Source of the DNA: Terrimonas ginsenosidimutans | Lineage (GTDB): Bacteria; Bacteroidota; Bacteroidia; Chitinophagales; Chitinophagaceae | Reading direction: 5' to 3' | NCBI RefSeq assembly: GCF_022012415.1 | Contig: NZ_JAKLTR010000032.1 | Coordinates: 1 to 36,027 of the forward strand | Length of the DNA: 36,027 nucleotides | Shown here: positions 7,320 to 29,054 of the stretch, in pieces | Layout of the letters: each line of letters opens with the position of its first letter | How positions within the stretch are numbered: the stretch's first letter is position 1 | Position numbers and translations under genes: made by a program | Notes under the pieces: model-generated | Database searches by the model: none | The model's input: only the letters and a program-made list of their open reading frames with translations | Told to the model about the DNA's origin: nothing

Positions 7320-7353
7320 TAGGAAGCCCGATTTTTTTAATCTTATATATTTA

Positions 7354-10628: not shown

Positions 10629-10687
10629 GAACAATAATAAGGAAGGTAACAGGGGGTGATTCAATCGGGTGTTAGTTTTTAGATGAA

Positions 10688-12208: not shown

Positions 12209-12698
12209 AAAGGTGCTTGGCAAGAATGCGGCGGATGCGGTTCGGCCATATTTTCCTATGACGCGCTCAAAGTGGAAGCTTATTCTTATTAAGCGTAGGT
12301 TTAAAGAATTTGGCGAAAGAAGTACTATTACCAGCCCATCGATATTTCAAGGGATGGAAAACATATCTATTGGCAAAGATTCTGATATAGGGGCGTTTGT
12401 TCATATTTGGGGAAACGGTGGCGTGACAATTGGCGATGGCGTATTGATCGCGTCACACGTCGTGATTACGAGTTTAACTCACAGCTATTCGGGTAAACAG
12501 ATAAAAAATGCTCCGACAGTAGCGGCCCCCATCCATATCGATAATGGCGTATGGATTGGTGCACATGCGGTGATTATGCCAGGTGTTACAATTGGTGAAG
12601 GTGCTGTTATAGGAGCTGGTGCTATTGTGACATCTAATGTTCCTGCTATGGCAATAGCTGTCGGTGTGCCTGCCAGGATAATAAAATATCGGGAATAA
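12192..12698 (+). CDS. Hexapeptide-repeat acyltransferase (LbH family)
   Basis: A 168-residue left-handed beta-helix acyltransferase that probably O-acetylates a sugar of the repeat unit. Hexapeptide coils run through about residues 50-160: ISIGKDSDIGAFVHIWGNGG, VTIGDGVLIASHVVITS, then the LTHSY loop whose His is the likely catalytic base, followed by IHIDNGVWIGAHAVIMPG and VTIGEGAVIGAGAIVTS. It ends with the usual VGVPARIIKY. Its start lies inside the wzx 3' end, so it is co-transcribed with wzx. The acceptor sugar is unknown; acetyl-CoA as donor is the family norm. Confidence 0.88.
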   Translation: MKRMLKKVLGKNAADAVRPYFPMTRSKWKLILIKRRFKEFGERSTITSPSIFQGMENISIGKDSDIGAFVHIWGNGGVTIGDGVLIASHVVITSLTHSYSGKQIKNAPTVAAPIHIDNGVWIGAHAVIMPGVTIGEGAVIGAGAIVTSNVPAMAIAVGVPARIIKYRE

Positions 12699-12701
12699 CC
12701 C

Positions 12702-13376
12702 ATGAAGAGTTTTTTAATAAACAGGATAAAAGATATTCAAAATGCTAGGATCCTATCAAAGCATAAAGGGAAAAATATCAGGTTTCTTAAGAATGTTAGA
12801 ATCGACGCTAAATGTGTTTTTGAAGCTTGGGTATCTATTGGCGAGAGCAATAAGTTGAGTAATTGCCAAATCGGAACAGGAAGTTATACAGGGAGAAATG
12901 TTGAATTTGGGTCAGTTAAAGTTGGCAGATTCTGTTCAATCGGATCATTTGTCAGAAACACTGGGGGGCGGCATCCTTTATCCCGGTTTGTGTCAACTCA
13001 CCCGGCTTTTTTTTCAACAGGGAAGGCGGCAGGGTTTACGTTCGGAAGAGAGCAGAAGTTTGAAGAGTTCAGATATGCCACTCCACCATTTTGGGTCGAG
13101 ATCGGCAATGATGTCTGGGTAGGGGACAATGTAACTATTCTAGATGGTATTAAGATTGGTGACGGCGCGGTGATTGGAGCGAATGCGTTGGTTACGAAAG
13201 ATATCGAACCATATTCTATCAATGTTGGTATACCAGCAAAGAAAATTGCATCCCGCTTTAATCAATCCGAGATTGATTTTCTGCTGGATGTAAAATGGTG
13301 GAATAGGGATTTCGAATGGATTCGAGACAATTTCAACATGTTTGATGATATAGAAAAACTTCGGAGCGCTTTATAA
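12702..13376 (+). CDS. CatB/XAT-type hexapeptide acyltransferase
   Basis: A 224-residue protein with left-handed beta-helix repeats and the long inserted loop of the xenobiotic-acetyltransferase (CatB-related) branch. Coils are seen at about 45-90 (VSIGESNKLSNCQIGTGSY, VKVGRFCSIGSF) and 135-185 (VEIGNDVWVGDNVTIL, IKIGDGAVIGANALVTK). The loop between them carries the HPLSRFVSTHPAFFS segment, with catalytic-type His, as in CatB-like enzymes encoded in many capsule clusters. A C-terminal helical tail (about 195-224) with KWWNRD is typical for that branch. It starts 3 bases after the previous stop, so the two acyltransferases are surely in one operon; they probably modify different positions or sugars. 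Confidence 0.88.
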   Translation: MKSFLINRIKDIQNARILSKHKGKNIRFLKNVRIDAKCVFEAWVSIGESNKLSNCQIGTGSYTGRNVEFGSVKVGRFCSIGSFVRNTGGRHPLSRFVSTHPAFFSTGKAAGFTFGREQKFEEFRYATPPFWVEIGNDVWVGDNVTILDGIKIGDGAVIGANALVTKDIEPYSINVGIPAKKIASRFNQSEIDFLLDVKWWNRDFEWIRDNFNMFDDIEKLRSAL

Positions 13377-13387
13377 AAAGCTGATAA

Positions 13388-14635
13388 ATGAAAGTAATAT
13401 TTTCAACTGGCCATGGGCGTTTACATATAGTACAGTCAGCTGTATCTGTGAAGAAAGCGGGATGTAACGTGGTTCTAATAACAGGATGGGTTCCGGGTAA
13501 ACACATATCTGAAAAATGGATAAACAGATTTGGCAGATTTCTCGGTCGTTCGAACCTTGCATCTGGATTAAAAAAGCGTTCTCCGAAAGAACTATCGCCA
13601 GATGAAATAAGAACGTGTGGCAGTTCTGAATTTGTTGTACAGATACTTTTTAAATTATCAGCATATCGCTTCTTCAAGCGGGCGGTTGGAGCTGTGCTTG
13701 GATGGCGGCTTTTTGGATGGCAGTCAAAAAAATATATCTCAAATGCTGAAATTTTTCATGTCAGAAGTGGTGCTGGTAGAGGAGGCGCAATAAAAAAAGC
13801 TCGTCAAAAGGGGATGAAGATCGTAGTTGATCATAGCATCTCTCATCCAAAAGAAATGGAGAAGCAATTGCTGAAGTCTGCGGGTAAAGGAGGAATAAAG
13901 CATAATCATTATCTTGGAACCTGGCCTTCTGACAAATTCTGGAGATCAATAGTAAGAGATTGTGAAGAAGCAGATGTTCTTGTAGTTAATTCAGAATATG
14001 TAAAATGGTCTTTTGTAATTGAAGGGTATGAAGCGGACAAGATCAAGGTTGTCCCTCTCGGCGTGAGTACGGAATTTGGGAGTGGTAAATTGAGCTATCA
14101 AACCACCAATGTGATCAAACTAGTGTTCACCGGGGCCTTTGGCAGCAGGAAAGGGGCATCAATAATTATAGAGGCGCTTGAGATTCTGGAGAAAAAAGGG
14201 GTTAAATATTCTTTTGAAGTTATTGGGAGTGTAATGGGGGATATTGTAATCCCTGATTGGGTGAATGAAAGTGATTCTATAAAGTTTTACGGCCATTTAC
14301 CGCAATCTGAGATGATCCCATTGCTCACTCAGAGTGATATCTATATTTTTCCAACATACAGCGAGGGATCTGCTCAGTCAGTCAAGGAAGCAATGGCATT
14401 GGGGCTTCCCGTAATTACCACGCAACAGTGTGGGTCTCCAATTACGCACTTAAAGACAGGCATGCTCATTTCTGACGGCGACGCCAGTCAACTGGCAGAG
14501 GCTATTTTACAGTTAAGGGAAGACAAAGGCCTGCGGGAATCTATTGGCAAACAAGCCGCGCTTCTTATTAAAGGTGAGCACACCTGGGAGAATTATGGTG
14601 AAAAGATGGTTGAGATTTACAAGAATTTATTGTAG
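13388..14635 (+). CDS. Glycosyltransferase, GT4-like (GT-B fold)
   Basis: A 415-residue cytoplasmic glycosyltransferase. The N-terminal Rossmann-like half begins MKVIFSTGHGR and contains the motif VLVVNSEYVKWSF near its end, typical of GT4 acceptor domains. The C-terminal donor-binding half has LVFTGAFGSRKGASIIIEAL, and the EX7E signature with E326 and E334 inside PTYSEGSAQSVKEAMALG, followed by PVITT. It starts 11 bases after the CatB-like gene. It should add one sugar of the repeat unit from a nucleotide-sugar donor with retention of configuration; donor and acceptor are not predictable here. Confidence 0.9.
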   Translation: MKVIFSTGHGRLHIVQSAVSVKKAGCNVVLITGWVPGKHISEKWINRFGRFLGRSNLASGLKKRSPKELSPDEIRTCGSSEFVVQILFKLSAYRFFKRAVGAVLGWRLFGWQSKKYISNAEIFHVRSGAGRGGAIKKARQKGMKIVVDHSISHPKEMEKQLLKSAGKGGIKHNHYLGTWPSDKFWRSIVRDCEEADVLVVNSEYVKWSFVIEGYEADKIKVVPLGVSTEFGSGKLSYQTTNVIKLVFTGAFGSRKGASIIIEALEILEKKGVKYSFEVIGSVMGDIVIPDWVNESDSIKFYGHLPQSEMIPLLTQSDIYIFPTYSEGSAQSVKEAMALGLPVITTQQCGSPITHLKTGMLISDGDASQLAEAILQLREDKGLRESIGKQAALLIKGEHTWENYGEKMVEIYKNLL

Positions 14636-14649
14636 GTAAAAAGCACACA

Positions 14650-15957
14650 TTGGCTAGCAGTCGTATTATAATAAAAGTGCAGATGGGCCTGTATGCTATT
14701 TTATCAGGCATAAGGCTAAACCTTGGAGGTCAGTTAGGCTTAAATGAGATACTGGCGGTCGGGGGGAGCTTATCAATAAAAAAATGGAAGGAACTATTCA
14801 GGGATGTACCGGACATAAAAAGGATAACTATAGCTTATTTAGTTTTTCTTTTTGCCCAGATATTAAGTGACATAGTAAATCATTCAGCTACGAATGATCT
14901 TGTGAGAGGCTGGGCAAATATTGCAATGGCCATTATAGTTACTAATTTTCTTGCGCGTCTGTTGTATCGCGCACCGGCCTTGATTGTCGTTTATTTGATC
15001 GGAGAGATTATACGCTTGGCGCTTTTCGGTGAGGAATCCGAGGGCGGGCTAGAGGATATGGGGTTCTTTAAATTTTACCTCGTGCCTATTCTCAATTCAA
15101 TTGTATTAGTATTGGCGTATTACTTATTAAGTAAAAAAAGAGAAAGCCGCCGTCTGATTGTGGGCCTGCTTGTATTTTATGGGTTGTTCAGTATCGCGTT
15201 TGACGCGAGATCCAACGGGATTTTTTGGATACTTACAGGTTTCGTCCTTCTGCAGATGGAAAGGGTAAAAAAACTTACACTAAGGAAAGCTGTACCATAT
15301 CTGGTTTTTTTTATAATTCTGTTCCAGCTTCTTTATAGTTTTTATGTGTCGTCGGTTCTATCAGGAAGTATTGGCGGGGATCACTCGAAAGAACAGTTTG
15401 ACAGGCTTGAAAATCCATACAATCCCTTAGCACTATTAGCATCGGGAAGGGCGGAAACATTCGTCGCAATTGAAGCAATCAGAGACAAGCCTGTTTTTGG
15501 TCATGGTTCTTGGGCTCCGGATAAAGATGGGAAATATACTCTTTTGATGCATAAAATGCATGGTGAAGAGGAGAAGTTTCTTTCACATCTCGAAAATGCT
15601 GAAAAAGGCCTTATTATTCCAAGCCATTCAGTTATAATAGGCACATGGGCTTGTGCTGGGGTGCTTGGTTTCCTAGCTATAATGTACATCTTTGTTTTGC
15701 TGGTAAGACGTTTTTTTAGTCTCTTTCGGCAACCGGAGTTTTCAGCCAGCCCGCTTTGCCCGATATTGATTTACTTTTTTTTCTATCTCGTATGGACATT
15801 TTTCTTTTCGCCACTCCCGCATATTAAACAGACTTTGCCCGTTATGATAGCACTGGTGGTTGTATTACACCGCAAAGGAGAGATACAGTTTAAGCAAAAA
15901 CAGGTTAAGCGGACAATGGATTCTATAGCTTTAACTAAAGTAGGATTTACAAACTGA
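14650..15957 (+). CDS. Wzy-like polysaccharide polymerase (O-antigen ligase/polymerase family)
   Basis: A polytopic membrane protein of up to 435 residues with about 10-12 predicted helices, expected to polymerise repeat units in the periplasm. A large periplasmic loop (about 230-325) sits between helices and holds the sequence around GHGSWAPDKDGKY; it ends in SHSVIIGTWACAGVLG, resembling the HNxxL...GxxG pattern of the Wzy/WaaL family. The start is uncertain: TTG at 14650 gives the longest frame, with GTG at 14677 and ATG at 14683 as alternatives. The ATG keeps the first helix intact and is a good candidate. It is flanked by glycosyltransferase genes and is the only polymerase candidate in the locus. 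Confidence 0.82.
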   Translation: MASSRIIIKVQMGLYAILSGIRLNLGGQLGLNEILAVGGSLSIKKWKELFRDVPDIKRITIAYLVFLFAQILSDIVNHSATNDLVRGWANIAMAIIVTNFLARLLYRAPALIVVYLIGEIIRLALFGEESEGGLEDMGFFKFYLVPILNSIVLVLAYYLLSKKRESRRLIVGLLVFYGLFSIAFDARSNGIFWILTGFVLLQMERVKKLTLRKAVPYLVFFIILFQLLYSFYVSSVLSGSIGGDHSKEQFDRLENPYNPLALLASGRAETFVAIEAIRDKPVFGHGSWAPDKDGKYTLLMHKMHGEEEKFLSHLENAEKGLIIPSHSVIIGTWACAGVLGFLAIMYIFVLLVRRFFSLFRQPEFSASPLCPILIYFFFYLVWTFFFSPLPHIKQTLPVMIALVVVLHRKGEIQFKQKQVKRTMDSIALTKVGFTN

Positions 15958-15961
15958 TTAG

Positions 15962-17110
15962 ATGAAAATAGTTTTTATCTCGTTATCGGATGCTTCGGAT
16001 GTTCGTAGTTGGTCTGGATTAACTTACCACATATCAAAAGCATTAGCTTCTCAGCCTGGCGTTCAGGTTATTTATTTGGATAAACTGGCAGAAAAATCTA
16101 AAGGAATCCCTTACTTAGTTCAAGGAGTAAAAAAGGTTTTATATGGAAAATTGGGAAAGCATATTGATATAAAACTTTCTCCTTGGCGACTTAAAAAAAT
16201 AGGCAAAATACTATTAAAGTTATTGCCACAAGATGCAGATATAATTTTTGCTGATAGTTCACTACCGCTTGCATATTTGAAGACAGATATACCAAAGGTA
16301 TTTTATACCGACGCGACTTTTGCGAGTATTCTCGGGTTTTACAGGCCGATTTCGTCGTATGCAAAAGAGACGATAAGAAACGGAAATAAAATTGATCGAT
16401 TAGCCATTCAGGCAAGTAAGATCGCAATATATTCGTCCGATTGGGCGGCTGCGTCGGCAATAAAAGATTATGAGTGTAGCTCAGACAAGATAAAAGTTGT
16501 TCCTTTTGGCGCAAATATAGAATGTGACAGAACGTCTAATGATATTGATGCATTGGCCAGAAATCGCACAGACATGCCTGTATGTAATTTCCTCTTTTTA
16601 GGAGTTGATTGGGCAAGAAAGGGAGGCGATTTTGCAGTAGAAGTGGTCAAGAAAATGAATAGCCTTGGCGTTCCATCTGTTTTGCATATCGCAGGTATCC
16701 CTAATTTAAGTGATTACGGCGAGTTTGTTGTTAACCACGGATTTATAAGTAAACGGGAAGAGGCCGGTCGTAACAGACTCAGTGAACTGATGAGCAATTC
16801 ACATTTTCTTCTTTTACCAACTCGCGCGGATTGCACTCCGGTCGCGTATAGCGAGGCGAATTCATTTGGTCTTCCAGTGTTAACCACCGATGTTGGTGGT
16901 ATAAGAACAATAGTTCGGGATGGAGTGAACGGCTGGGCATTTCCCTTATCAGCCTCTGCTCAGGAATATGCTGATTTTGCAATATCTGTCTTCCAGGACA
17001 AAGACCGTTACAGGAAGATGTGTTTGTCTTCATTCGACGAATTTGAGAAAAATCTTAATTGGCATATATCAGGTAAACGAATCATCGAACTACTGAAAAA
17101 TATCAAATGA
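15962..17110 (+). CDS. Glycosyltransferase, GT4-like
   Basis: A 382-residue GT-B-fold glycosyltransferase. The N-terminal domain starts MKIVFISLSDASDVRSWSG, the acceptor-side pattern of many GT4 enzymes. The C-terminal domain shows FLFLGVDWARKGGDFAVEVV, and a variant of the EX7E motif in which the first acidic residue is Asp: D290 and E298 in TRADCTPVAYSEANSFG, followed by LPVLTTDVGG. It starts 4 bases after the polymerase stop and its stop codon overlaps the next start by 4 bases (ATGA), so translation is coupled. Donor and linkage are unknown. Confidence 0.9.
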   Translation: MKIVFISLSDASDVRSWSGLTYHISKALASQPGVQVIYLDKLAEKSKGIPYLVQGVKKVLYGKLGKHIDIKLSPWRLKKIGKILLKLLPQDADIIFADSSLPLAYLKTDIPKVFYTDATFASILGFYRPISSYAKETIRNGNKIDRLAIQASKIAIYSSDWAAASAIKDYECSSDKIKVVPFGANIECDRTSNDIDALARNRTDMPVCNFLFLGVDWARKGGDFAVEVVKKMNSLGVPSVLHIAGIPNLSDYGEFVVNHGFISKREEAGRNRLSELMSNSHFLLLPTRADCTPVAYSEANSFGLPVLTTDVGGIRTIVRDGVNGWAFPLSASAQEYADFAISVFQDKDRYRKMCLSSFDEFEKNLNWHISGKRIIELLKNIK

Positions 17111-18225
17111 AAAAATCGATTACGTTTGTAACGCTAGGCAACATTGAAACAATAGCCACGATGAAGAGAGCACTAGGAATGGCTTATCCTTTACATAAAG
17201 AGGGATGGAATGTGTCTATTATTGCTATGGATTGTTTTGAGAATCGTAAACGGATTTCATTAGAGTGCGGAAACGATGTTACTGTAAGGTATTATAAAGA
17301 ATCCAGCGCCAATGACGAAGTAGCTCAGAAAACAGCCTTGATCAGAGAACTGAAACCGTCCCATATTTATTTCTGTTCATTCAGCGTGAGAAACCGTATT
17401 ATAAAAAATAAACTCGGTTATAAGCCATTTATTATTATTGAACATAGTGAGCTTCAGTCTGGTATTAAGGATCTGTCGTTTCCCCAGAAAATAAAAGCTC
17501 ATCTAATGGAATATGGCTCTGTTATATATGCAGATGGCCTCGTTTGTGCAAGTACCTTCCTTGTAAAGGAATACAGGAAGTATGCAAAAAAGTTATTTAA
17601 AAGGAAAATGCCAATTTCCTATTCGCCGTACGCGTTCAATAATGATGTAGTTTCTGCACCCAAAATCATTCTTGAAGAGCTGGAGGAAAAATATCGTGGG
17701 AAAGATGTGTTTCTTTATATGGGGACAATGACAAGAAATTATGGACTGTTTGCGATGCTAGATGCAATGAAAAATAACAGAGCTCAGTATCCCGAGGCCA
17801 GGCTTTTGTTAATGGGTAAGGGGCGACATTACCAGGAAGGTATTGCCTATGCCGAGAAAAACAATCTTACTAACATTGTCGATTTTTTGGGTTATGTGCC
17901 TGAAGAAGAGATCAGTTCATATTTCGAATTGGCCGACGCTTTCATTTCGCCATTGAATAATACAGTTCAGGATATTGCGCGTTGCCCCAGCAAAATTTAC
18001 ATGTACCTGCCATTCAAAAAGCCGGTATTTACCAGTAAGATCGGGGAGCCTGCTGAGATCTTCGGGGAAAACGGCTTCTACTTTGACACTAGCAAGCCAG
18101 AGTCCTTATCCGTATTAATGATGCAGAAGAAAGAAGGAAAACTCCGTGAGCCTGATATCAATATTGATGAGCATAGCTGGCACCAAAGAACAATAGACTT
18201 CAATAACTGGATCAATTCACTTTAA
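17107..18225 (+). CDS. Glycosyltransferase, GT4-like and divergent
   Basis: A 372-residue predicted glycosyltransferase. It has the GT-B layout: an N-terminal domain with FVTLGNIETIATMKRALGMA, a linker near 165-175, and a donor-binding domain with DVFLYMGTMTRNYGLFAMLD and VDFLGYVPEEEISSYFELAD. The usual EX7E signature is replaced by PLNNTVQDIARCPSKIYMYL followed by KKPVFTSKIGE, which matches the CPSKIYEYM-type variant seen in many capsule enzymes. The gene overlaps the previous one by four bases. I am confident of the fold and class but not of the sugar. Confidence 0.85.
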   Translation: MKKSITFVTLGNIETIATMKRALGMAYPLHKEGWNVSIIAMDCFENRKRISLECGNDVTVRYYKESSANDEVAQKTALIRELKPSHIYFCSFSVRNRIIKNKLGYKPFIIIEHSELQSGIKDLSFPQKIKAHLMEYGSVIYADGLVCASTFLVKEYRKYAKKLFKRKMPISYSPYAFNNDVVSAPKIILEELEEKYRGKDVFLYMGTMTRNYGLFAMLDAMKNNRAQYPEARLLLMGKGRHYQEGIAYAEKNNLTNIVDFLGYVPEEEISSYFELADAFISPLNNTVQDIARCPSKIYMYLPFKKPVFTSKIGEPAEIFGENGFYFDTSKPESLSVLMMQKKEGKLREPDINIDEHSWHQRTIDFNNWINSL

Positions 18226-18232
18226 TAGCAGC

Positions 18233-19582
18233 ATGAATAACGAGATTTTGATTACAAAACAGGAGGGTAATTTTTTCTTTGGATTTCATGATATACCAGC
18301 CTGGAACAGCAAAGGCAATAAACTTGCCGCACTCAGAATTGACAATATTTACACTCCCCCCCAATCATCCTCCATCTGTGATGTAGGATTTGTAGAAGAC
18401 GGTGAGTTTATCAAGTTGGGAACAACAAATGCTTTCAATTATCCTCAAGGGGCTAGACAGCAATGGATAGGAAATACTGAATTACTTATTGTCAATGACC
18501 GGATTGATAATGCATGGCGATCTAAGGTATACGATACAGAATCCCGTCGGGAGGTATCTGAATTAGCTTTCTCTACTCATGTGATTACTGATGAGGGGTG
18601 GGCTTTTGGTCTGGATTACTCGCGTCTCCACAGAGTTGGGGGATATGGATATACTGGACTTAAAGATGAAACAGCTGGTAGTGATACTCCCGATAACGCA
18701 GGAATTATAAGGCATAACGTTTATTCAAAAGAAAGCAATCTGATCGTATCTATAAAGCAGGTGTCGGAATTTCAATCGGCACCGGGTATAGGTCAGCATC
18801 ATTACATTACCCATCTCGTTTTAAATCCATCACAAACCAGAATTGCTTTTTTGCACAGATCCAAATTGAAGGACGGTGGAGAAACATCCAGATTGATGAC
18901 AATCGGTGTTGATGGCCGTGAGCTTCGTTGTCTTGCCACCGGTTTTTTAAGCCATTTTGATTGGAAGGATGATAATCATGTGGCAATATGGGGTAGAACG
19001 GGTAGCGGGATTGAAAAGCTAAGAAACTCCGTTCTTTACAGAATGATGCCTTCCGGGTTGATCTCAAGAGCAAAAAAGATAATAAAGAAGCTGATTTACA
19101 AACCTAAACCTGCAATGCAAGGGGCATCTCTTTTTAATTGGCTGGTTTTCAGTGATGAGACTGTTCCGAAACAAACTTTTTTGGCTAAGGGCGTAATCAC
19201 TGAAGATGGGCATCCTATGTTTTGCCCGGCTAATCGCGACTGGATGATCTGCGACAATTATCCCGACAAGGATGGAGTTAGAACCTTGTTTCTTTTTCAG
19301 GATAGTACTCAAAGAAAAATTGATCTGGGAAAGTATAAGATGATACCCGATAAGCCTGATATGTCTTCAATCGGCGATGCCCTTGTTGGTGTTGAAGCAT
19401 CTGTGCTGAAAGCTTTTGATATCAGGAATATGGCCTTTTATCGGAGCGGGCTTCACTGTGATCTTCATCCCCGCTGGAAAAAAGACGGGACTATGGTCGC
19501 ATTTGACTCCATTCATGAAGGGAAGCGATCGATTTATGGATATGAGGTTGGGGAGATTTTGTTCCCAATTGAAAGAAAATGA
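18233..19582 (+). CDS. Beta-propeller protein resembling oligogalacturonate lyases, within the EPS operon
   Basis: A 449-residue protein without signal peptide or membrane helix, so probably cytoplasmic. It reads as a beta-propeller of TolB/OGL type: repeated blades such as FFFGFHDIPAWNSKGNKLAA, THLVLNPSQTRIAFLHRS, HPMFCPANRDWMICDNYP and LHPRWKKDGTMVAFDS. His-rich positions H189, H190 and H194 (QHHYITH), H327 (DGHPMF), H408 and H412 (LHCDLHPRW) are placed much as the metal-binding residues of oligogalacturonate lyase family proteins, although the Gln-x-x-His-x-His pattern of those enzymes is not fully kept. It starts 7 bases after a glycosyltransferase gene and ends 7 bases before the next, so it is part of the operon. 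Possible roles are a lyase or epimerase acting on an intermediate, a binding or scaffold protein, or an unusual transferase. The fold call is moderately sure, function open. Confidence 0.6.
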   Translation: MNNEILITKQEGNFFFGFHDIPAWNSKGNKLAALRIDNIYTPPQSSSICDVGFVEDGEFIKLGTTNAFNYPQGARQQWIGNTELLIVNDRIDNAWRSKVYDTESRREVSELAFSTHVITDEGWAFGLDYSRLHRVGGYGYTGLKDETAGSDTPDNAGIIRHNVYSKESNLIVSIKQVSEFQSAPGIGQHHYITHLVLNPSQTRIAFLHRSKLKDGGETSRLMTIGVDGRELRCLATGFLSHFDWKDDNHVAIWGRTGSGIEKLRNSVLYRMMPSGLISRAKKIIKKLIYKPKPAMQGASLFNWLVFSDETVPKQTFLAKGVITEDGHPMFCPANRDWMICDNYPDKDGVRTLFLFQDSTQRKIDLGKYKMIPDKPDMSSIGDALVGVEASVLKAFDIRNMAFYRSGLHCDLHPRWKKDGTMVAFDSIHEGKRSIYGYEVGEILFPIERK

Positions 19583-19589
19583 AGTCAGT

Positions 19590-20672
19590 ATGATTGCAAT
19601 ACTTCAGCCGTTTATCCCACATTACAGGGAAGACTTTTTTACAGGTCTTGGAAGCCATGAATCGTGTGATGTTTTTGTATATGATAAAAAAGAGGCGGAT
19701 AAAAGCAACTTCAGACAATCAGGAATTGCTACAAAAAAAATCGCGTCGTTTGAACGTAAAGGCATTCTTGTATATAATCCGTTCTCGCTTTTAAAACAAG
19801 AATACAAGGTATTGGTCCTGATGTTGAATTTTGCCCATTTATCTACATGGATACTTTTATTGACACGCATCTTTCATCGTAAAAAAATAATTCTTTGGGG
19901 ACATGGCATTTCGGTAAAGCGTTATACTGCGGAAGAACAGCGTCCTTCCAGGCTTTTGCGATGGATGATTGGATTATCAGATGGCGTGTGGTTTTATACG
20001 GCGAAAGAAAAGGAGATCTGGCAAAAGATCCATCCGCAAATCCCCTCAGTTTCTTTAAATAATACAATATCAGAGGTAGATAGGATCGTTTCCCGCGTTC
20101 CAGGGGATAAGCAGATCCTCAGGGGAAAATACAGGATCAGGGAAGAAGTTATATTTATTTTCAGTGCCCGTTTTAATACAGCTGATCGCCGAATCGATCT
20201 CCTGGAAGAATCGATGAAAAAACTGAGCAGTAAAAAGTTCGGTTTTATTATAATAGGAGACGGTAAACTCAAACCAGATTTTGGCAGATACAAAAATGTA
20301 TATGACTTCGGGGAGTTGTATGACAGGCAAACTAAAAACGAATTGTTTGACGCGGCTGATATCTATTTTCAACCTGGCTGGCTGGGCCTGTCTATTGTCG
20401 AGGCAATGGCCTACGGTAAGCCCATTATTTCATTTGAACGCAGCACAGCGTTAAAACAATGTGTTGAATATGCATACGTTCAGAATGGATTCAATGGGTT
20501 GATTTTTTCTGATACAGAAGCATTTCTTACCGCTGTTCAGCGCTTAAGTTTTCAGGAGCTCACGATACTCGGAGAGAACGGGAAACGATTTGCTGCAACA
20601 TATTTGAGTATGGATAATATGGTAAACTCCGGTTTGTCACTGATAAAAAAAATACGAGGAGAGAAATCATGA
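19590..20672 (+). CDS. Glycosyltransferase, GT4-like
   Basis: A 360-residue GT-B enzyme. The reading frame is open from 19416 inside the preceding gene, but the start at 19590 is chosen because MIAILQPFIPHYREDFF is the normal N-terminus of this group and lies 7 bases after the previous stop codon. The acceptor domain includes LWGHGISVKRY, and the donor domain has FIFSARFNTADRRIDLLEE, FIIIGDGKLKPDF and FQPGWLGLSIVEAMAYGKPI, in which the final Glu of EX7E is kept but the first is replaced. It overlaps the next gene by four bases. Donor sugar is unknown. Confidence 0.88.
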   Translation: MIAILQPFIPHYREDFFTGLGSHESCDVFVYDKKEADKSNFRQSGIATKKIASFERKGILVYNPFSLLKQEYKVLVLMLNFAHLSTWILLLTRIFHRKKIILWGHGISVKRYTAEEQRPSRLLRWMIGLSDGVWFYTAKEKEIWQKIHPQIPSVSLNNTISEVDRIVSRVPGDKQILRGKYRIREEVIFIFSARFNTADRRIDLLEESMKKLSSKKFGFIIIGDGKLKPDFGRYKNVYDFGELYDRQTKNELFDAADIYFQPGWLGLSIVEAMAYGKPIISFERSTALKQCVEYAYVQNGFNGLIFSDTEAFLTAVQRLSFQELTILGENGKRFAATYLSMDNMVNSGLSLIKKIRGEKS

Positions 20673-21832
20673 GATTGTTACACATTGTCGCAGGGATGGA
20701 TCCGCGCACTGGCGGAGTGACACAGGCAGTGAGTATGATCATCGGCGGGTTAAGTAATAATGGGATTAATAATGAGGTGGTATGTTTGGATCACCCGGAG
20801 GCAGATTTTTTGTCCGGTTATACTTTCACTATTCACGCACTAGGCCCTGCAAAAACGGCCTGGCGTTTTAGCGCGAAGTTGAAACCTTGGCTTTTAGCGC
20901 ATATTAGCAACTATGACGCTATTGTTGTCCATGGACTTTGGCAGTACCATGTTTATGCGATTTATAATGCTTGGAGAAAAATCAAGTATTCCAGGCCCAA
21001 GCTATACGTTATGCCGCATGGAATGCTTGATCCATATTTTCAGAATGCTTCCGGCAGAAGGTTAAAAGCTATCAGGAATAGCTTATTCTGGCTTTTTTTC
21101 GAAAGGAGCCTGGTAAATAATGCAGACGGATTGTTCTTTACTTGTGAAACTGAACGCGTACTGGCCAGTAAAAGTTTTAAACAATATAATGCGCGGAGAG
21201 AGGAGATTGTGAGCCTCGGAATTCCTGAAGCAATACCGTTTGCCGGTTCAATGCGCGAGGCGTTGATTGCGAAATGCGGGGGAGTTGATCCAACCGACTG
21301 CATCCTGTACATCAGTCGCATTGATCCCAAGAAGGGGGTTGATTTGTTGGTCGACGCTTATATTTCCCTCAAGACTCAGACTCAGATTAAGCTGCCGAAA
21401 CTGGTCATTGCTGGACCGGGACTTGATTCAAGTTTTGGAAAAACAATACTGGATAAAGCTGCTGGCAATACAGACATAATATTCACCGGTATGCTTAACG
21501 GAGATGCTAAATGGGGGGCATTTTATCTTAGCTCGGCCTTGATTTTACCAAGTCACCAGGAAAACTTTGGGTTTGTTGTAGTTGAAGCAATGTCCTGCAG
21601 TAAGCCTGTATTGATAACAGATCAGGTAAATATCTGGCGCGAAATAGATAAAGGAAATGCGGGATTGGTAGAGGAAGATAATTTAGCAGGGATTTTAAAG
21701 TTACTTTCATCATTTGCTGCTTTGAACCAGGCTGCAATTTCCAGTAAAGGCGAAAATGCACTGGCAACGTTCAACAAGCTTTTTTCATTAAAAAGTTCGA
21801 CAGGGTTGTTTTTGAAAGCCCTGAATAAGTAG
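20669..21832 (+). CDS. Glycosyltransferase, GT4-like
   Basis: A 387-residue GT4 enzyme. The N-terminus MRLLHIVAGMDPRTGGVTQA has the glycine-rich turn that follows the first strand in GT4 proteins. The acceptor domain includes VVHGLWQYHVYAIYNAW and the PHGMLDPYF motif common in capsule glycosyltransferases. The donor domain has LYISRIDPKKGVDLLVDAY, and the full EX7E motif with E298 and E306 in SHQENFGFVVVEAMSCSKPV. It is translationally coupled to the previous gene through a 4-base overlap. This is the most canonical GT4 in the locus. Confidence 0.92.
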   Translation: MRLLHIVAGMDPRTGGVTQAVSMIIGGLSNNGINNEVVCLDHPEADFLSGYTFTIHALGPAKTAWRFSAKLKPWLLAHISNYDAIVVHGLWQYHVYAIYNAWRKIKYSRPKLYVMPHGMLDPYFQNASGRRLKAIRNSLFWLFFERSLVNNADGLFFTCETERVLASKSFKQYNARREEIVSLGIPEAIPFAGSMREALIAKCGGVDPTDCILYISRIDPKKGVDLLVDAYISLKTQTQIKLPKLVIAGPGLDSSFGKTILDKAAGNTDIIFTGMLNGDAKWGAFYLSSALILPSHQENFGFVVVEAMSCSKPVLITDQVNIWREIDKGNAGLVEEDNLAGILKLLSSFAALNQAAISSKGENALATFNKLFSLKSSTGLFLKALNK

Positions 21833-21852
21833 ATACAAAAGTTATTGAGGTT

Positions 21853-22395
21853 ATGCATAATACTGATACGCATTCAGGGGCGTCATTTTCTGTGAAGAAC
21901 AGGATTGCCAGGGTGATATGGAATGCAGTTTATTTGTTTCTTTTTCGGTTTAGTCCCACGCCGCTACATGGCTGGAGATCTTTTTTATTACGATTGTTTG
22001 GTGGTAAAGTTGGAAAAGGGGTGCATGTATATCCCGGAGCAAAAATATGGGCCCCATGGAATGTTGAGCTGAAAGACCAATGTGGAATTGCCAATGACGT
22101 TATTTTGTATTCGCAGGGTCATATAAAAATTGGAGCCAGATCTGTTATTTCACAAGGGTCTCACATCTGTGCCGGAACGCATGACTATACGCGTAAGGGA
22201 TTTCCATTGATCACTATGCCTATCACGATAGGAGATGAGGTATGGATTGCAGCTGAATGTTTTATCCACCCGGGAGTTACTATCGAAGACGGGGCGGTTG
22301 TTGGTGCACGATCAGTAGTGACAAAAGACTTGCCTCGCTGGATGGTATGTTCCGGTCATCCCTGTCAGCCAATAAAACAACGCATACTTGAATAG
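21853..22395 (+). CDS. WcaF-like acetyltransferase
   Basis: A 180-residue hexapeptide acyltransferase resembling putative colanic-acid acetyltransferases of the WcaF type. The N-terminal region (about 15-55) has the typical hydrophobic-aromatic RVIWNAVYLFLFRFSPTPLHGWR segment split across a helix, and is followed by LLRLFGGKVGKGVHVYPGAK. Hexapeptide coils run over about 60-165, with a catalytic-type His in CAGTHDYTRKGFPLI. It ends in CSGHPCQPIKQR, the family's usual VGNPAKPIK-like close. It lies 20 bases after the previous gene. It would O-acetylate a glycan residue; this is the third acyltransferase of the locus. Confidence 0.9.
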   Translation: MHNTDTHSGASFSVKNRIARVIWNAVYLFLFRFSPTPLHGWRSFLLRLFGGKVGKGVHVYPGAKIWAPWNVELKDQCGIANDVILYSQGHIKIGARSVISQGSHICAGTHDYTRKGFPLITMPITIGDEVWIAAECFIHPGVTIEDGAVVGARSVVTKDLPRWMVCSGHPCQPIKQRILE

Positions 22396-22420
22396 TTTGT
22401 CAGAATTATAAAGAATATTG

Positions 22421-23257
22421 ATGCTTTCCCCCCTTGATTTAACAATCGCTATCCCCGTAAAAAATGAACAAACGAATCTTGCAGGCTGTCTTGCGGCCAT
22501 AGGGTCCGGATTGGCTAGAAAGATCGTTGTGATTGATTCTGGTAGTACAGATGAAACAATAAAGATCGCTGTTGACAATGGAGCAGAAGTCATTCCTTTC
22601 GAATGGAATGGAAAGTTCCCTAAAAAACGAAACTGGTTTTTACGGAATCATCGTCCCGAAACTGAATGGGTGCTGTTCCTGGATGCAGACGAGTATTTAA
22701 CGGAAGAATTTAAGAAGACTCTTCGGGTGGCTCTTGACGACAATAATGTTTCGGGCTATTGGCTAAGCTATTCAATTTATTTTCTTGGAAGAAAACTGAA
22801 AGGGGGCTATCCCTTGCGCAAGCTCGCACTTTTCAGAGTGTCTTCCGGAGAATATGAACGGATCGATGAAGAGCGGTGGAGTCATCTGGACATGGAAATT
22901 CATGAACACCCCGTGCTGAATGGTAAAACTCAAAAATTAAAAACCCAGATCGACCATCGCGATTTTCGCGGAATTCAGCACTATATGCATAAGCACAACG
23001 AATATGCAAGCTGGGAGGCTGCCAGATTCTTAAAATTAAAAAATGATCAGACAGCCTGGAATTCGTTAACGTGGAAGCAAAAAATGAAATACAGACTGAT
23101 GAATACACCTTTTATTGGACCAGTCTATTTTTTGGGAAGTTATATTTTTATGGGTGGCTTTTTGGATGGTGCACGAGGCTTTTCATTTGCAATTTTTAAG
23201 ATGTCTTACTTTACGGAAGTATATTGTAAAATTCAGGAAATACAGAAACACAAATAA
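22421..23257 (+). CDS. Glycosyltransferase family 2, WaaE/KdtX-like
   Basis: A 278-residue GT-A-fold glycosyltransferase. The nucleotide-binding region has IAIPVKNEQTNLAGCL and IDSGSTDET (D39, D44), and the metal-binding DXD motif is D88-A-D90 in LFLDADEYL. The stretch PKKRNWFLRN between them and the later HEHP segment are typical for the WaaE/KdtX branch that adds glucose or related sugars to LPS core or capsule. The C-terminal region (FKMSYFTEVY, preceded by the hydrophobic FLGSYIFMGGFLDGARGF) suggests membrane association. ATG at 22421 is taken as start; the codon before it, TTG at 22418, is in frame. It is the last gene of the tightly packed block. Confidence 0.9.
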   Translation: MLSPLDLTIAIPVKNEQTNLAGCLAAIGSGLARKIVVIDSGSTDETIKIAVDNGAEVIPFEWNGKFPKKRNWFLRNHRPETEWVLFLDADEYLTEEFKKTLRVALDDNNVSGYWLSYSIYFLGRKLKGGYPLRKLALFRVSSGEYERIDEERWSHLDMEIHEHPVLNGKTQKLKTQIDHRDFRGIQHYMHKHNEYASWEAARFLKLKNDQTAWNSLTWKQKMKYRLMNTPFIGPVYFLGSYIFMGGFLDGARGFSFAIFKMSYFTEVYCKIQEIQKHK

Positions 23258-23404
23258 AGAAGGGTTACTAATCGTTGATAATCAAAAGGAAGAAAAAAAT
23301 ATCTAAAAGGGAAAAATAAATTTCAGGAGAATACGTATATAGGATGGCTAAGAGTTTTTACTAATTTCAACTCCGATCTGATTTATTCAGGTATGCCATA
23401 TGAT

Positions 23405-23419
23405 TGTTGCATTGCAACA
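23405..23419. promoter_or_regulatory. Perfect 7+1+7 palindrome ahead of the PA14/T9SS gene
   Basis: TGTTGCA-T-TGCAACA is a perfect interrupted palindrome 19 bases before the start at 23438. It could be an operator for a dimeric regulator or a short hairpin in the leader. No known regulator can be named from it. Confidence 0.35.
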
Positions 23420-23437
23420 CCATTGAACCAATCCTAT

Positions 23438-24928
23438 ATGCTGAAAAACCTTTTAAACAGTTGTATACTGATATCACTCTTTGCAGTGAGATCACTAGCA
23501 CAATCATGCACCCCACAAGGAGACGAAATCACATTCGGAACTAACGACACCTGGATCGGGTATGTATACGATAACTCCGATTTGACCAATTACAAAGGAT
23601 ATATTTTGCAAGGCACTCCCGGCAACCCTGCTTTTGATCAGGCGTTTGGCGGATTTTATGTCAACTTCCCAACCAATGGTTGTACTGTGCACACAGAATC
23701 CTTTAGCGTAAGATATAAATTAAGAAAAACCTTTGCTCCGGGTGATTACGATTTCAATATCACAGGTGATGACGGATATCGTTTAAGTATAGATGGTGGA
23801 ATTACATGGGCTGTAAACAATTGGAGTTTTAACGGATATACGGAAAATACAGTAACACTTTCTCTTAACGGCACTTATGATCTTGTTCTTGAGTATTATG
23901 AATACGCTCACAATAACCGCATAACTTTTCAGGTTTCTAACGCCTGCCTTGGTACAGGCAGTACAACAGTTTATGGGGCAAACAATGTTTGGCGAGGTTA
24001 TGTCTACAATGGGACAGATTTTAATTTTTTTAAAGGATTAAGAAATCAGGGATCCTCAGTCAGTTCTGATTTTGATGAAAATTTCGGAGGTGCTTATGTT
24101 CGTTTCAATACAAGTAGCTGTGCTTTACTAAGTGAGCAATTTTCTGTCCGTTACAGACTGTCGCGGACATTTAGCCCCAATAATTACTCGTTCATAGTTG
24201 GTAGTGAAGACGGCTACCGTCTTAGCTTTGATGGGGGAGCCTCCTGGGCTATTGACAACTGGTCAAATACAAGCTATACCAGTTCAAATCTTATGGTGAA
24301 TCTTAATGGGGCTTACAACATGGTTCTCGAATACCGTGAGTTCAGCGGGACTAACCGGATTTTCTTTTCATCGGGCCTTGCCGTCGTTTTACCTGTTGAA
24401 TTGATATCATTTTCAGCACGCAAAACCAGTTCTGGAATTCTAGTTAACTGGCGAGTCGGGACATCTGCAGATTTGCTTCGCTTTGAAATCGAGAGAAGCT
24501 CTGACGGACAACAATTTCGCACCGTCGGTGATAAACCTGTTAGTCTATTCAGTGACAGGTATGACTTTCTGGACCCATTTTCTCCTTCTGGTCAAATATA
24601 TTACCGACTTAAAATACTTGAGCGTTCTGGTAAAATCTATTATTCAAAACCCGTAATAATTCCTTACGAGAATCAAGGGTTTAAAGTGTTTCCCACTTTA
24701 GTTAATAACGGAAATTTTTATTTTGCTAACAATCAGCCTTTGAAGGCTGCCGTTATTCATGTAGTTGATTTCGCCGGCCGGCCGATTCATAAATATTTAC
24801 TGAATGATCTTGCGGCGCAACAAACAACGTCATTGAGACTTCCCGCGTTTATCACCAAAGGGTTCTATTTTATTAAATTGGAAGAGGCCGGGGTCTTGCG
24901 GGTGGCTGAAAAAATATATGTGCAGTGA
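23438..24928 (+). CDS. Secreted protein with two PA14-like repeats and a type IX sorting domain
   Basis: A 496-residue exported protein. The start at 23438 gives a signal peptide (MLKNLLNSCILISLFAV, cleavage after A21), while the longer frame from 23393 would not. Two homologous domains follow, about 23-170 and 174-312. Each has W-x-GYVY near its start, FGG-x-YV, ESFSVRY or EQFSVRY, a GDDGYRLS or SEDGYRLS loop with DGG, and a LVLEYYE or MVLEYRE strand, which is the pattern of PA14-type carbohydrate-binding modules. A fibronectin-III-like segment begins near P319 (PVELISFSA), and a type A C-terminal T9SS sorting domain begins near F415 (FKVFPTLVNNGNF) and ends ERIYVQ-like at the last residue. 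It should be secreted across the outer membrane and anchored at the surface, plausibly binding the polysaccharide made by the locus; that role is inference. Confidence 0.87.
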   Translation: MLKNLLNSCILISLFAVRSLAQSCTPQGDEITFGTNDTWIGYVYDNSDLTNYKGYILQGTPGNPAFDQAFGGFYVNFPTNGCTVHTESFSVRYKLRKTFAPGDYDFNITGDDGYRLSIDGGITWAVNNWSFNGYTENTVTLSLNGTYDLVLEYYEYAHNNRITFQVSNACLGTGSTTVYGANNVWRGYVYNGTDFNFFKGLRNQGSSVSSDFDENFGGAYVRFNTSSCALLSEQFSVRYRLSRTFSPNNYSFIVGSEDGYRLSFDGGASWAIDNWSNTSYTSSNLMVNLNGAYNMVLEYREFSGTNRIFFSSGLAVVLPVELISFSARKTSSGILVNWRVGTSADLLRFEIERSSDGQQFRTVGDKPVSLFSDRYDFLDPFSPSGQIYYRLKILERSGKIYYSKPVIIPYENQGFKVFPTLVNNGNFYFANNQPLKAAVIHVVDFAGRPIHKYLLNDLAAQQTTSLRLPAFITKGFYFIKLEEAGVLRVAEKIYVQ

Positions 24929-24973
24929 CAATGACTTTTAAAAAGAAAAAGTATATGCAGCGGGCTTATACTA

Positions 24974-24981
24974 TATCTTTG
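24974..24981 (+). promoter_or_regulatory. -7 box (TATCTTTG) directly ahead of the wcaI-like gene
   Basis: An exact TAnnTTTG match ends only 6 bases before the GTG start at 24988. The transcript would be leaderless or nearly so. No clear -33 TTTG was found at the expected distance. Confidence 0.45.
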
Positions 24982-24987
24982 TAATCT

Positions 24988-26211
24988 GTGAAAAACATTC
25001 TTTTAATTGCCGGGAACTACCATCCCGAACTTACTGGCATCGGCCGCTATAATGGAGAAATGCTTGAATGGCTCTCCAACCAGGGATATGATTGTACAAC
25101 CATCGCAACATATCCATACTATCCTCAATGGAAAATAGCTCCTGCCTATAAAAAGAAACACCGCTGGTATTCGAGCGAAAAGAATGGCAACATAAGGATC
25201 TACCGGTGCCCTCACTACATTCCCGCCAGGCCAGGAGGCATCAAACGGATGATACTCGATTTTTCTTTCTTTGTCTCAGGCTTCTTCAAAACACTTCAAC
25301 TCGTATTTGGGAAAAAGCGGGATATTATTATTGTGGTATCGCCGCCTTTGGTTCCCACATTGCTGGGTTTGACATACAAATTCTTCAGAGGCGGTAAAAT
25401 GATCTTCCACGTACAGGATCTTCAGATAGAAGCTGCCCGCGATCTGCAAATGATAAAGTCCAGAAGCCTGATCAGGATGCTGTTCGGTCTTGAACGCTTT
25501 ATCATGAAAAGAGCGTCAGTTCAAAGCAGCATCTCTACCGGAATGGTAAATAAAGTAAAGGCGAAATCAGGCAGGGATGTTATCCTGTTCCCTAACTGGT
25601 CCGACACAACACGCTTCTTTCCGCTTGAAAAGCAGGGTTTGAAAACAGATTTTGGCTTTGCAGAGACTGATACAGTTGTACTCTACTCAGGTGCTATCGG
25701 GGAAAAGCAAGGACTTGAGATCATATTGACCGCTGCCGGTTTTTTCCGGGAGAATACTTCCCTTAAATTTATTATTTGTGGTTCGGGGCCTTATAAAGAG
25801 AAACTGAAACAGCAAGCATTGAATGCTGGAATAACAAATGTTCATTTTTTGGATTTACAACCAGCGGAACAGCTGAACCGGTTCCTGAATATGGCTGATA
25901 TGCATCTGGTTATCCAAAAAGCTGACGCAAGTGACCTGGTAATGCCAAGCAAACTCACCAATATACTTGCTGTCGGTGGTCTTGCAATCGTAACAGCAAA
26001 TCCGGGAAACAGCCTGTATGACGAGATCAATGATCACCAGATGGGGATCATTGCAACGGCCGAAAGCGCAGAATCCCTCGCGGAAGCAATAAAAATCGGA
26101 ATGACTGACAGGATCAGCCAATATAAAGCCAATGCAAGACGTTATGCAGAAGATTTTTTGTCAATCGACAAAGTGATGCAACGTTTTGTGACCTCTGCCA
26201 TTGAAAAATAG
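24988..26211 (+). CDS. WcaI-like glycosyltransferase
   Basis: A 407-residue GT4 enzyme resembling WcaI, the colanic-acid glycosyltransferase. Hallmarks are the N-terminus KNILLIAGNYHPELTGIGRY, TYPYYPQWK in the acceptor domain, VSPPLVPTLLGL, FHVQDLQIEAARDLQM, and FPNWSDTTRFFPL. The donor domain has VLYSGAIGEKQGLEIIL and MPSKLTNILAVGG in place of the usual EX7E region, as is normal for this subfamily. The start is GTG at 24988, chosen because it begins the conserved first strand. A TATCTTTG -7 box just upstream suggests that this gene starts a second transcription unit. In E. coli WcaI adds glucose or fucose-linked sugars; the specific role here is not known. Confidence 0.88.
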   Translation: MKNILLIAGNYHPELTGIGRYNGEMLEWLSNQGYDCTTIATYPYYPQWKIAPAYKKKHRWYSSEKNGNIRIYRCPHYIPARPGGIKRMILDFSFFVSGFFKTLQLVFGKKRDIIIVVSPPLVPTLLGLTYKFFRGGKMIFHVQDLQIEAARDLQMIKSRSLIRMLFGLERFIMKRASVQSSISTGMVNKVKAKSGRDVILFPNWSDTTRFFPLEKQGLKTDFGFAETDTVVLYSGAIGEKQGLEIILTAAGFFRENTSLKFIICGSGPYKEKLKQQALNAGITNVHFLDLQPAEQLNRFLNMADMHLVIQKADASDLVMPSKLTNILAVGGLAIVTANPGNSLYDEINDHQMGIIATAESAESLAEAIKIGMTDRISQYKANARRYAEDFLSIDKVMQRFVTSAIEK

Positions 26212-26240
26212 CCCCCTGTGGAGGCTACCATACATTTTCT

Positions 26241-26248
26241 TATTTTTG
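26241..26248 (+). promoter_or_regulatory. -7 box (TATTTTTG) ahead of gmd
   Basis: An exact TAnnTTTG match followed by C, in the gap between the WcaI-like gene and gmd. It would give a leader of about 38 bases. An imperfect hairpin TAGCC...GGCTA at 26209-26227 lies just upstream. No clear -33 element was seen. Confidence 0.45.
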
Positions 26249-26292
26249 CGGTCGAAATCAAATTCTTTAAATAACCATTATTTAATTATTCT

Positions 26293-27405: not shown

Positions 27406-27413
27406 GGCTAAGT

Positions 27414-27585
27414 GAAAAGTAAAAAGTCAAAAGTAAAAAATGGTGAAGGTTTGCCAGGCCGGGCAAATTTTACTTTTGACATCTGCGCGCTGAGTAGTCT
27501 CTGTAACTATTGGCACCTGACGCGATCGGAGCGGGAGACGCTTTAAGGCTCCTGATTTTTACTTTTGAATTTTTACTTTTTAATT
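27414..27585. repeat. Inverted-repeat element between gmd and fcl
   Basis: A left arm at about 27415-27439 (AAAAGTAAAAAGTCAAAAGT...) is matched, with one mismatch over 25 bases, by the reverse complement of a right arm at about 27556-27580. A third inverted copy lies inside: GTCAAAAGTAAAA (27426-27438) pairs perfectly with TTTTACTTTTGAC (27468-27480), and this stem is extended by TTTGCC (27450-27455) with GGCAAA (27462-27467). Two exclusive folds are thus possible. Such AAAGTCAAAAGT-type runs are commonly seen between genes of Bacteroidota; here the arrangement could be a MITE remnant or a processing hairpin within the operon. Confidence 0.75.
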
Positions 27586-27598
27586 TTATTTAGAGCTA

Positions 27599-28531: not shown

Positions 28532-28549
28532 ATAATATTGAGAGAATAA

Positions 28550-28590
28550 ATGCCGGAGGCTTTTAAAGGCTTCCGGCATTATAATTTTAT
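28550..28590 (+). terminator. Hairpin terminator after fcl
   Basis: ATGCCGGA at 28550-28557 pairs with TCCGGCAT at 28572-28579, and the inner GGC/AAAGGC region can extend the stem imperfectly. The 3' side is T-rich but interrupted (TATAATTTTAT). It lies just before the GTG start at 28594, so termination may be partial. Confidence 0.65.
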
Positions 28591-28593
28591 CAG

Positions 28594-28977: not shown

Positions 28978-29018
28978 TCCTCTGATCGCAATCCCACTCA
29001 AGTTTTTGCGTTGTACTG

Positions 29019-29026: not shown

Positions 29027-29054
29027 CAACCTGAACCAACCCTGACCATTTCCT

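What the first reader, a model, noticed from the sequence alone, without database searches (positions are those of the whole stretch)
18233..19582. Lyase-like beta-propeller inside a polysaccharide biosynthesis operon
The protein resembles the TolB/oligogalacturonate-lyase propeller group, with several conserved His in loop positions (H189, H190, H194, H327, H408, H412), but has no export signal and is packed between glycosyltransferase genes with 7-base gaps on both sides. Degradative propellers are normally found in uronate catabolism, not in synthesis. A cytoplasmic propeller could modify a lipid-linked intermediate (elimination, epimerisation), edit wrong products, or scaffold the transferases. 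This is the best candidate in the window for an undescribed function.
Basis: partly seen in the sequence, partly recalled or inferred. Interest (0 to 1): 0.7.

Follow-up and report, generated by a model that had tools for sequence, protein, structure and literature searches.

The report
Propeller epimerase candidate in sugar-coat operon
A gene inside a bacterial slime-polymer operon encodes a propeller-shaped protein built like a sugar-acid-cutting enzyme; it most likely flips one carbon of a sugar acid before the sugar enters the polymer, as its named relative in a Shigella O-antigen cluster is annotated to do.

Summary
In detail: a 449-aa protein without an obvious signal peptide, 7 bases from a glycosyltransferase (GT) gene on each side. 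AlphaFold (pLDDT 94) gives a beta-propeller whose best PDB matches are PL22 oligogalacturonate lyases; profile comparison puts PL22 active-site positions in register. The protein belongs to a large family without a Pfam model (at least 552 places in GTDB contigs). Of the best 80, 31 have a GT within three genes; recognisable neighbours of the others include sugar-catabolism genes. One member is Shigella sonnei WbgV, named 'UDP-GalNAcA C5 epimerase' in RefSeq. The window's clade (13 of 13 classified rows beside GTs) lies far from WbgV, carries two inserts, one with a basic amphipathic helix, and the gene sits in the variable centre of the operon: a congener keeps the operon frame without it. 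Most likely it is a cytoplasmic, membrane-associated C5-epimerase acting on a UDP- or lipid-linked uronic acid. Substrate and activity are unproven. Of the proposed His cluster, H189 and H408 are not conserved; H194, H327, H412 (and H241) are invariant.

The parts
18233..19582 (+). 449-aa cytoplasmic PL22/TolB-like beta-propeller (P0001), proposed uronate C5-epimerase
18812..18814 (+). H194 codon, invariant 81/81; aligned with H192 of PL22 3pe7
18890..18892 (+). R220 codon, 79/81; aligned with PL22 R217 (catalytic base, role recalled)
18953..18955 (+). H241 codon, invariant; aligned with PL22 H242
19211..19213 (+). H327 codon, invariant; aligned with PL22 metal ligand H287 (role recalled)
19460..19468 (+). 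D410-L411-H412; D410 and H412 invariant, aligned with PL22 H353 and H355 (metal ligands, role recalled)
19007..19132 (+). insert of the window's clade (about residues 259-300, absent from WbgV) with a basic amphipathic helix (modelled helix 274-288), possible membrane contact
19358..19435 (+). second insert (about residues 376-401), gapped in 65-68 of 81 rows and in WbgV
17107..18225 (+). upstream GT4; homologue at -1/-2 in 8 of 13 propeller loci of the clade, in 0 of 7 propeller-less loci examined
19590..20672 (+). downstream GT; homologue at +1/+2 in 10 of 13 propeller loci of the clade, 0 of 6 propeller-less Chitinophaga-like loci, but present in propeller-less G395
7294..30455 (+). Wzx/Wzy-type exopolysaccharide operon: export protein, Wzc-like, Wzx, acetyltransferases, GTs, Gmd, Fcl, initiating sugar transferase

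Best explanation
The protein is a cytoplasmic (probably membrane-associated) beta-propeller enzyme related to PL22 oligogalacturonate lyases, in the same family as Shigella sonnei WbgV. It most likely inverts C5 of a hexuronic acid (D-GlcA to L-IdoA, D-GalNAcA to L-AltNAcA or similar) while the sugar is still UDP-linked or lipid-linked, so that the neighbouring GTs build an L-uronate into this strain-specific exopolysaccharide. Mechanism: the conserved site (H194, R220, H241, H327, D341, Y343, D410, H412) neutralises the carboxylate, possibly through a metal, and removes H5 as PL22/PL42 lyases do; re-protonation from the other face replaces beta-elimination. Shown by computation: fold, family, conserved site, operon position, variable presence. 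Annotated elsewhere, not tested here: WbgV activity. Inferred: metal, substrate, membrane contact, epimerase rather than lyase outcome.
For: High-confidence propeller model with PL22 as best PDB match (3c5m E 1.1e-10, TM 0.54/0.63) and PL42 at rank 6. hhalign to a PL22-type alignment: 97%, E 7e-11, with R220-R217, H241-H242, H327-H287, D410-H353, H412-H355 in register; a generic TolB-like control sequence gave 53%, E 1e-4, over query residues 83-235 only. WbgV matches the family profile at E 7e-53 over 357 columns, keeps the invariant residues and is named UDP-GalNAcA C5 epimerase in RefSeq, in a cluster with a UDP-GlcNAc dehydrogenase and an epimerase/dehydratase. Window clade: 13 of 13 classified rows beside GTs. 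A UDP-sugar dehydrogenase lies within the fetched stretch in 9 of 13 clade loci, directly adjacent in L031, and 17 kb away in a tenth (L029 = G710). The window genome holds four PF03721 matches, all on other contigs. The operon frame is shared while the propeller varies. Carboxylate neutralisation by metal or Arg and H5 abstraction are described for polysaccharide lyases (PMC8377490, PMC10951650, passages).
Against: WbgV is only 24% identical and a long branch far from the window clade, so substrate transfer is weak. No primary paper for WbgV was found; PMC9723277 names WbgZ as the C-5 epimerase and ties WbgV to another sugar, and the wording of PMC6467956 is compatible with that (passages). 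The window contig has no UDP-uronate dehydrogenase, nor has the 19-kb stretch around the G238 relative. The Chitinophaga dehydrogenase is also present in six propeller-less clusters, so it is not specific to the propeller. Recognisable neighbours of the non-GT relatives include catabolic genes, so the ancestral chemistry could be lytic. Metal ligands differ from PL22 (D410 for H353; H408, mostly Arg in the family, for Q350). The PDB superposition is loose (rmsd 6 A or more).
Confidence: 0.55

Rival explanations
1. Cytoplasmic uronate lyase: it cleaves wrongly built or recycled uronate-containing lipid-linked oligosaccharides (editing or turnover) by PL22-type beta-elimination.
For: PL22 is the closest known fold and profile found and Arg/His positions are kept. 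Neighbours of the 49 non-GT relatives include LacI regulators, GH2, GH4, sulfatases and fucosidases, where a lyase fits.
Against: WbgV, in a biosynthetic cluster, is named an epimerase. A lyase acting on a biosynthetic intermediate would be wasteful (inference). The Mn ligand set is altered.
Confidence: 0.17
2. An isomerase or epimerase acting on a different position or a non-uronate acid (the conserved site binds another carboxylate or a keto sugar).
For: One branch (Bradyrhizobium, Pacificitalea, Cupriavidus) keeps the site; in the two with gene annotation the neighbours include amino-acid-type metabolism genes. The window operon itself carries no UDP-uronate dehydrogenase.
Against: The PL22 register points to uronate carboxylate chemistry. 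UDP-sugar dehydrogenases lie in 9 of 13 clade loci.
Confidence: 0.15
3. Non-enzymatic scaffold that holds GT17107 and GT19590 together at the membrane.
For: Homologues of both GTs lie within two genes of the propeller in 7 of 7 Chitinophaga-type loci L021-L027, and an amphipathic basic insert is present.
Against: Fifteen alignment columns are invariant in 81 sequences, ten of them W, H, D, Y or R, including relatives from archaea and relatives with no GT found nearby.
Confidence: 0.06

Closest known systems
WbgV, Shigella sonnei / Plesiomonas shigelloides O17 ('UDP-GalNAcA C5 epimerase', RefSeq WP_000923778.1)
   Same: End-to-end family match (hhalign E 7e-53), the invariant residues, O-antigen/EPS gene cluster with GT, flippase and ligase/polymerase-type genes
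   Different: 24% identity; WbgV has an N-terminal extension and lacks the two inserts of the window clade; sugars of the two polymers may differ; no UDP-uronate dehydrogenase in the window operon
PL22 oligogalacturonate lyase (3pe7, 3c5m)
   Same: Propeller fold; R220, H241, H327, H412 align with R217, H242, H287, H355; PL22 too is cytoplasmic (recalled)
   Different: No PF14583 match; H353 replaced by D410, Q350 by H408 (Arg in 64 of 81 relatives); biosynthetic context
PL42 L-rhamnose-alpha-1,4-D-glucuronate lyase (7esl)
   Same: Propeller, rank 6 in Foldseek; uronate neutralised by Arg, His base/acid (passages)
   Different: Fungal enzyme in the PDB entry; catalytic residues were not aligned here
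TolB propeller
   Same: Fold and PD40-like repeats (PD40 hit in 34 of 81 members)
   Different: Tol-Pal component (recalled); P0001 is far below the TIGR02800 cut-off (11.5 of 343 bits); TolB was not examined for the conserved His/Asp set

Membership tests
WbgV-type propeller family (no Pfam model found) | End-to-end sequence homology with WbgV | tested here: met
   E 7.4e-53, 357 columns; 24%, E 3e-20 for the single comparison
WbgV-type propeller family (no Pfam model found) | Invariant W78, H194, H241, H327, D341, Y343, D410, H412, R432 (as found here) | tested here: met
   (81 of 81); the WbgV row has them
UDP-hexuronate C5-epimerase (as WbgV is named) | UDP-uronate supply encoded in the same cluster | tested here: not met
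   No PF03721 match on the window contig; four elsewhere in the genome; 9 of 13 clade loci have one in the fetched stretch
UDP-hexuronate C5-epimerase (as WbgV is named) | C5 epimerase activity | not testable with these tools
   needs purified protein
PL22 oligogalacturonate lyase | Match to PF14583 above its cut-off | tested here: not met
   0 Pfam families for P0001 at E 10; 1 of 81 members at 0.053
PL22 oligogalacturonate lyase | Propeller fold of the PL22 type | tested here: met
   ranks 1-3 (TM 0.42-0.63, rmsd 6-11 A); blades not counted one by one
PL22 oligogalacturonate lyase | Mn ligands H287, Q350, H353, H355 (roles recalled) | tested here: not met
   two of four identical (H327, H412), D410 and H408 at the other two
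PL22 oligogalacturonate lyase | Catalytic Arg (R217, role recalled) | tested here: met
   R220, 79 of 81
TolB | TIGR02800 score over cut-off | tested here: not met
   11.5 bits against 343

The most novel reading that the evidence does not exclude
A widespread enzyme class without a family model, derived from PL22-type lyases, performs uronate C5 epimerisation before polymerisation; the Bacteroidota clade makes UDP-L-iduronate or a lipid-linked L-iduronate (or L-AltNAcA) for exopolysaccharides, a precursor (UDP-IdoA) that one review calls not naturally available (PMC6272578, passage).
Probability: 0.3. Interest if true: 0.75.

Novelty: new variant of a known kind. Interest (0 to 1): 0.5.

Why it matters
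The C5-epimerases known from heparan sulfate and alginate act on the polymer (recalled; heparan sulfate case in PMC6272578, passages). A propeller enzyme that inverts C5 on the activated or lipid-linked sugar would give a route to L-uronates, link a lyase fold to epimerase chemistry, and give function to a family for which no Pfam model was found and which occurs in many bacterial phyla and in archaea. It would also predict which Bacteroidota exopolysaccharides carry L-uronic acids.

Tried and rejected
TolB or PL22 membership by library score: rejected. Viral or phage origin: no hit in viral contigs or phages. wbgV-like DNA in the E. coli genome collection: none at blastn sensitivity. Dehydrogenase co-location as a specific marker: weakened, because six propeller-less genomes, chosen because they have that dehydrogenase, carry it in the same operon frame; 43 of 394 same-family genomes have that dehydrogenase type at E 1e-185 and only one of these 43 (G710) has a propeller match at E 1e-20. 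A count over random EPS clusters was not possible (genome search cap reached). PDB sequence search with profile A1: only chance-level hits. A second control alignment (A8) was made and not used; the control is one sequence.

GT neighbours were called with a simple ORF caller and profiles grown from window proteins, so GTs of other families can be missed. For non-GT neighbours 170 proteins of 101-800 aa were listed, 142 aligned, 134 scanned; the rest were dropped by hand, mostly very long or short ones, to meet the limits. For GT neighbours 119 proteins of 13 loci were listed and 72 of 8 loci scanned. L008 is in alignment A1 but was left out of the tree. Eight short or weak matches (L009-L016) were not used further. 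The thirteen clade loci are L021-L032 plus G238 (L131); the thirteen classified tree rows are L021-L032 plus the window.

Full report
OBSERVATION. The ORF at 18233-19582 (+) encodes 449 aa. It lies 7 bases after a GT4-like gene (17107-18225) and 7 bases before another GT gene whose ATG is at 19590. The surrounding operon (about 7294-30455) is a Wzx/Wzy-type exopolysaccharide operon: polysaccharide export protein, Wzc-like protein, Wzx flippase, acetyltransferases, GTs, Gmd, Fcl and an initiating sugar transferase (the Wzy role of 14650-15957 is inferred from its length and position, Pfam gave nothing). The protein has no Pfam family at E 10 and no PDB sequence relative at E 10.

FAMILY. tblastn against plasmids found 36 records with a match, 35 of them covering at least 80% of the protein, among them Shigella sonnei WbgV, named 'UDP-GalNAcA C5 epimerase' in RefSeq, in the O-antigen cluster with a UDP-GlcNAc 6-dehydrogenase and an epimerase/dehydratase gene (some records name the same gene a glycosyl transferase). 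Against an 81-sequence family profile WbgV scores E 7e-53 over 357 columns; direct identity is 24%. The GTDB-based contig collection holds at least 552 confirmed places; titles of the best 80 show many bacterial phyla and archaea. In the 81-sequence alignment fifteen columns are invariant, among them W78, H194, H241, H327, D341, Y343, D410, H412, D425 and R432, and R209 and R220 are 79/81. H189 (16/81) and H408 (13/81) are not conserved. Pfam gives no family-wide hit (best: PD40 in 34 of 81 members); the ten members scanned against NCBIfam gave only hits far below the cut-offs.

FOLD AND SITE. AlphaFold2 with the family alignment gave mean pLDDT 94.1 and pTM 0.93; residues 291-300 average 63. 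Foldseek against the PDB ranks PL22 oligogalacturonate lyases first (3c5m E 1.1e-10, TM 0.54 by query and 0.63 by target, rmsd 6.0 A; 3pe7 TM 0.42/0.49), then hydrazine synthase, TolB and PL42. hhalign against an alignment of two PL22 structures and three PL22-like Bacteroidota proteins gave 97% and E 7e-11 over 194 columns, aligning R220 with R217, H241 with H242, H327 with H287, H408 with Q350, D410 with H353 and H412 with H355 (3pe7 numbers). That H287, Q350, H353 and H355 bind Mn and R217 is the base in PL22 is recalled; the paper was not held. A generic TolB-like protein, used as control, gave 53% and E 1e-4 over query residues 83-235 only, so without H241, H327, D410 and H412 (a single sequence, a modest control). 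Thus the site is PL22-like with a changed metal-ligand set.

CONTEXT. With home-made profiles, 31 of the 80 loci have a GT within three genes. The window's clade of 14 tree rows holds the window, L021-L032 and one row that was not classified (G238); the 13 classified rows are all beside GTs. On the tree the GT label needs 8 changes, at least 6 of them forced by well-supported branches, against about 26 in shuffles. Among 134 neighbour proteins of the other 49 loci the commonest Pfam families are LacI (7), hexapeptide transferases (7), MocA-type oxidoreductases (5), and GH2, GH4 and sulfatases (3 each); most neighbours there share no common family. Several of these relatives begin with Tat-type leaders (sequence reading). 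So one fold and site occurs in both catabolic and biosynthetic settings, which fits a shared first step, removal of the uronate H5 proton, with different outcomes. This is inference.

VARIABLE MODULE. A congener (G395) has the same operon frame (export protein, Wzc, GT, Gmd, Fcl, sugar transferase at 65-95% identity) but no propeller; most of the centre of the operon is replaced. Six Chitinophaga-like genomes (kinship inferred from synteny and a dehydrogenase about 80% identical) have the frame of the Chitinophaga propeller loci, including ugd, without the propeller. These six were picked because they carry that dehydrogenase, so they show that ugd occurs without the propeller, not how often. 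A homologue of the downstream GT (19590) is at +1/+2 in 10 of 13 propeller loci (missing in L030, L031 and G238) and in 0 of 6 such Chitinophaga-like loci, but it is present in G395; a homologue of the upstream GT (17107) is in 8 of 13 and 0 of 7. In the same-family sample 4 of 394 genomes, the window's own included, have a propeller match at E 1e-20; besides the window's own only G710 is close (58%). The gene therefore behaves like a serotype-type cassette that probably alters one sugar of the polymer (inference).

SUPPLY OF URONATE. A UDP-sugar dehydrogenase is in 9 of the 13 clade loci as fetched, and in 10 of 31 GT-context loci against 0 of 49 others. Seven of the nine are close kin (six Chitinophaga and [Flexibacter] sp. 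ATCC 35208) and not independent. In L029 (G710) it is 17 kb away, outside the fetched stretch. L028, L030 and G238 showed none in the fetched stretches. The window contig has none; the genome has four PF03721 matches elsewhere, two of them in a nucleotide-sugar block on contig C2.

CLADE FEATURES. Compared with WbgV, the window clade has two inserts. The first (about residues 259-300) holds a stretch that is basic and amphipathic in all 13 rows examined (P0001, L021-L032): best 18-residue windows have hydrophobic moment 0.45-0.69 and net charge +4 to +7. It suggests contact with the membrane, where Wzx substrates are assembled; this is not shown.

LITERATURE. All ten searches of the open library were used. 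'WbgV' is in five papers by search listing; I read passages of two Plesiomonas papers. PMC9723277 names WbgZ as the C-5 epimerase and ties WbgV/WbgX to another sugar; PMC6467956 says that wbgVX and wbgZ indicate UDP-D-FucNAc4N and UDP-L-AltNAcA, which is compatible with that. The RefSeq name and these readings disagree, and I found no primary biochemical paper for WbgV in this library. [quoted passage not shown] one search for UDP-iduronate terms found only that review. For PL42, Arg neutralises the carboxylate and His acts as base and acid (PMC10951650, passages).

VERDICT. The finding is real and its fold guess is right. The most likely role is C5 epimerisation of a uronate before polymerisation, by analogy with WbgV and PL22 chemistry. 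It is not an undescribed kind of enzyme, but the clade, its inserts and its probable substrate look new, and the family as a whole is poorly described in what I could search.

Noticed in passing
window 174-456: About 60-base tandem repeat (4.7 copies, 78% matches) inside the mechanical ORF 138-1223, ahead of what reads like a response regulator (sequence reading); open frames on both strands over the repeat are probably spurious.
   Followed up: no
window 32420-32578: Tandem repeats of 61 and 19 bases rich in CG between the EPS operon and the gene at 32925; function unknown.
   Followed up: no
window 23393-24928: 511-aa secreted-looking protein with two similar domains and a sorting-domain-like tail (sequence reading) inside the EPS operon; a 45% relative stands at the same place in the congener G395.
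   Followed up: partly
L018, L019: Branch of the same propeller family (Bradyrhizobium, Pacificitalea) beside amino-acid dehydrogenase, aminotransferase, hydantoinase and RidA genes: a possible racemase or epimerase in amino-acid catabolism.
   Followed up: partly
L054, L085, L089, L090, L095, L004: Relatives that begin with Tat-type leaders (sequence reading; the one scanned, L004, scores below the NCBIfam TAT cut-off): an exported, probably degradative branch of the family.
   Followed up: no
L130 (G000 C2:212000-231999): Nucleotide-sugar block in the window's genome: two UDP-sugar dehydrogenases, an epimerase-like gene, and RmlC/RmlD-like and DegT-like genes (the last three read from sequence starts).
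   Followed up: partly
G395 C20:34227-35623 (L132): The congener's initiating sugar transferase gene is split into two reading frames (90% and 83% identical to the window's 29055-30455): a possible pseudogene or sequencing error.
   Followed up: no
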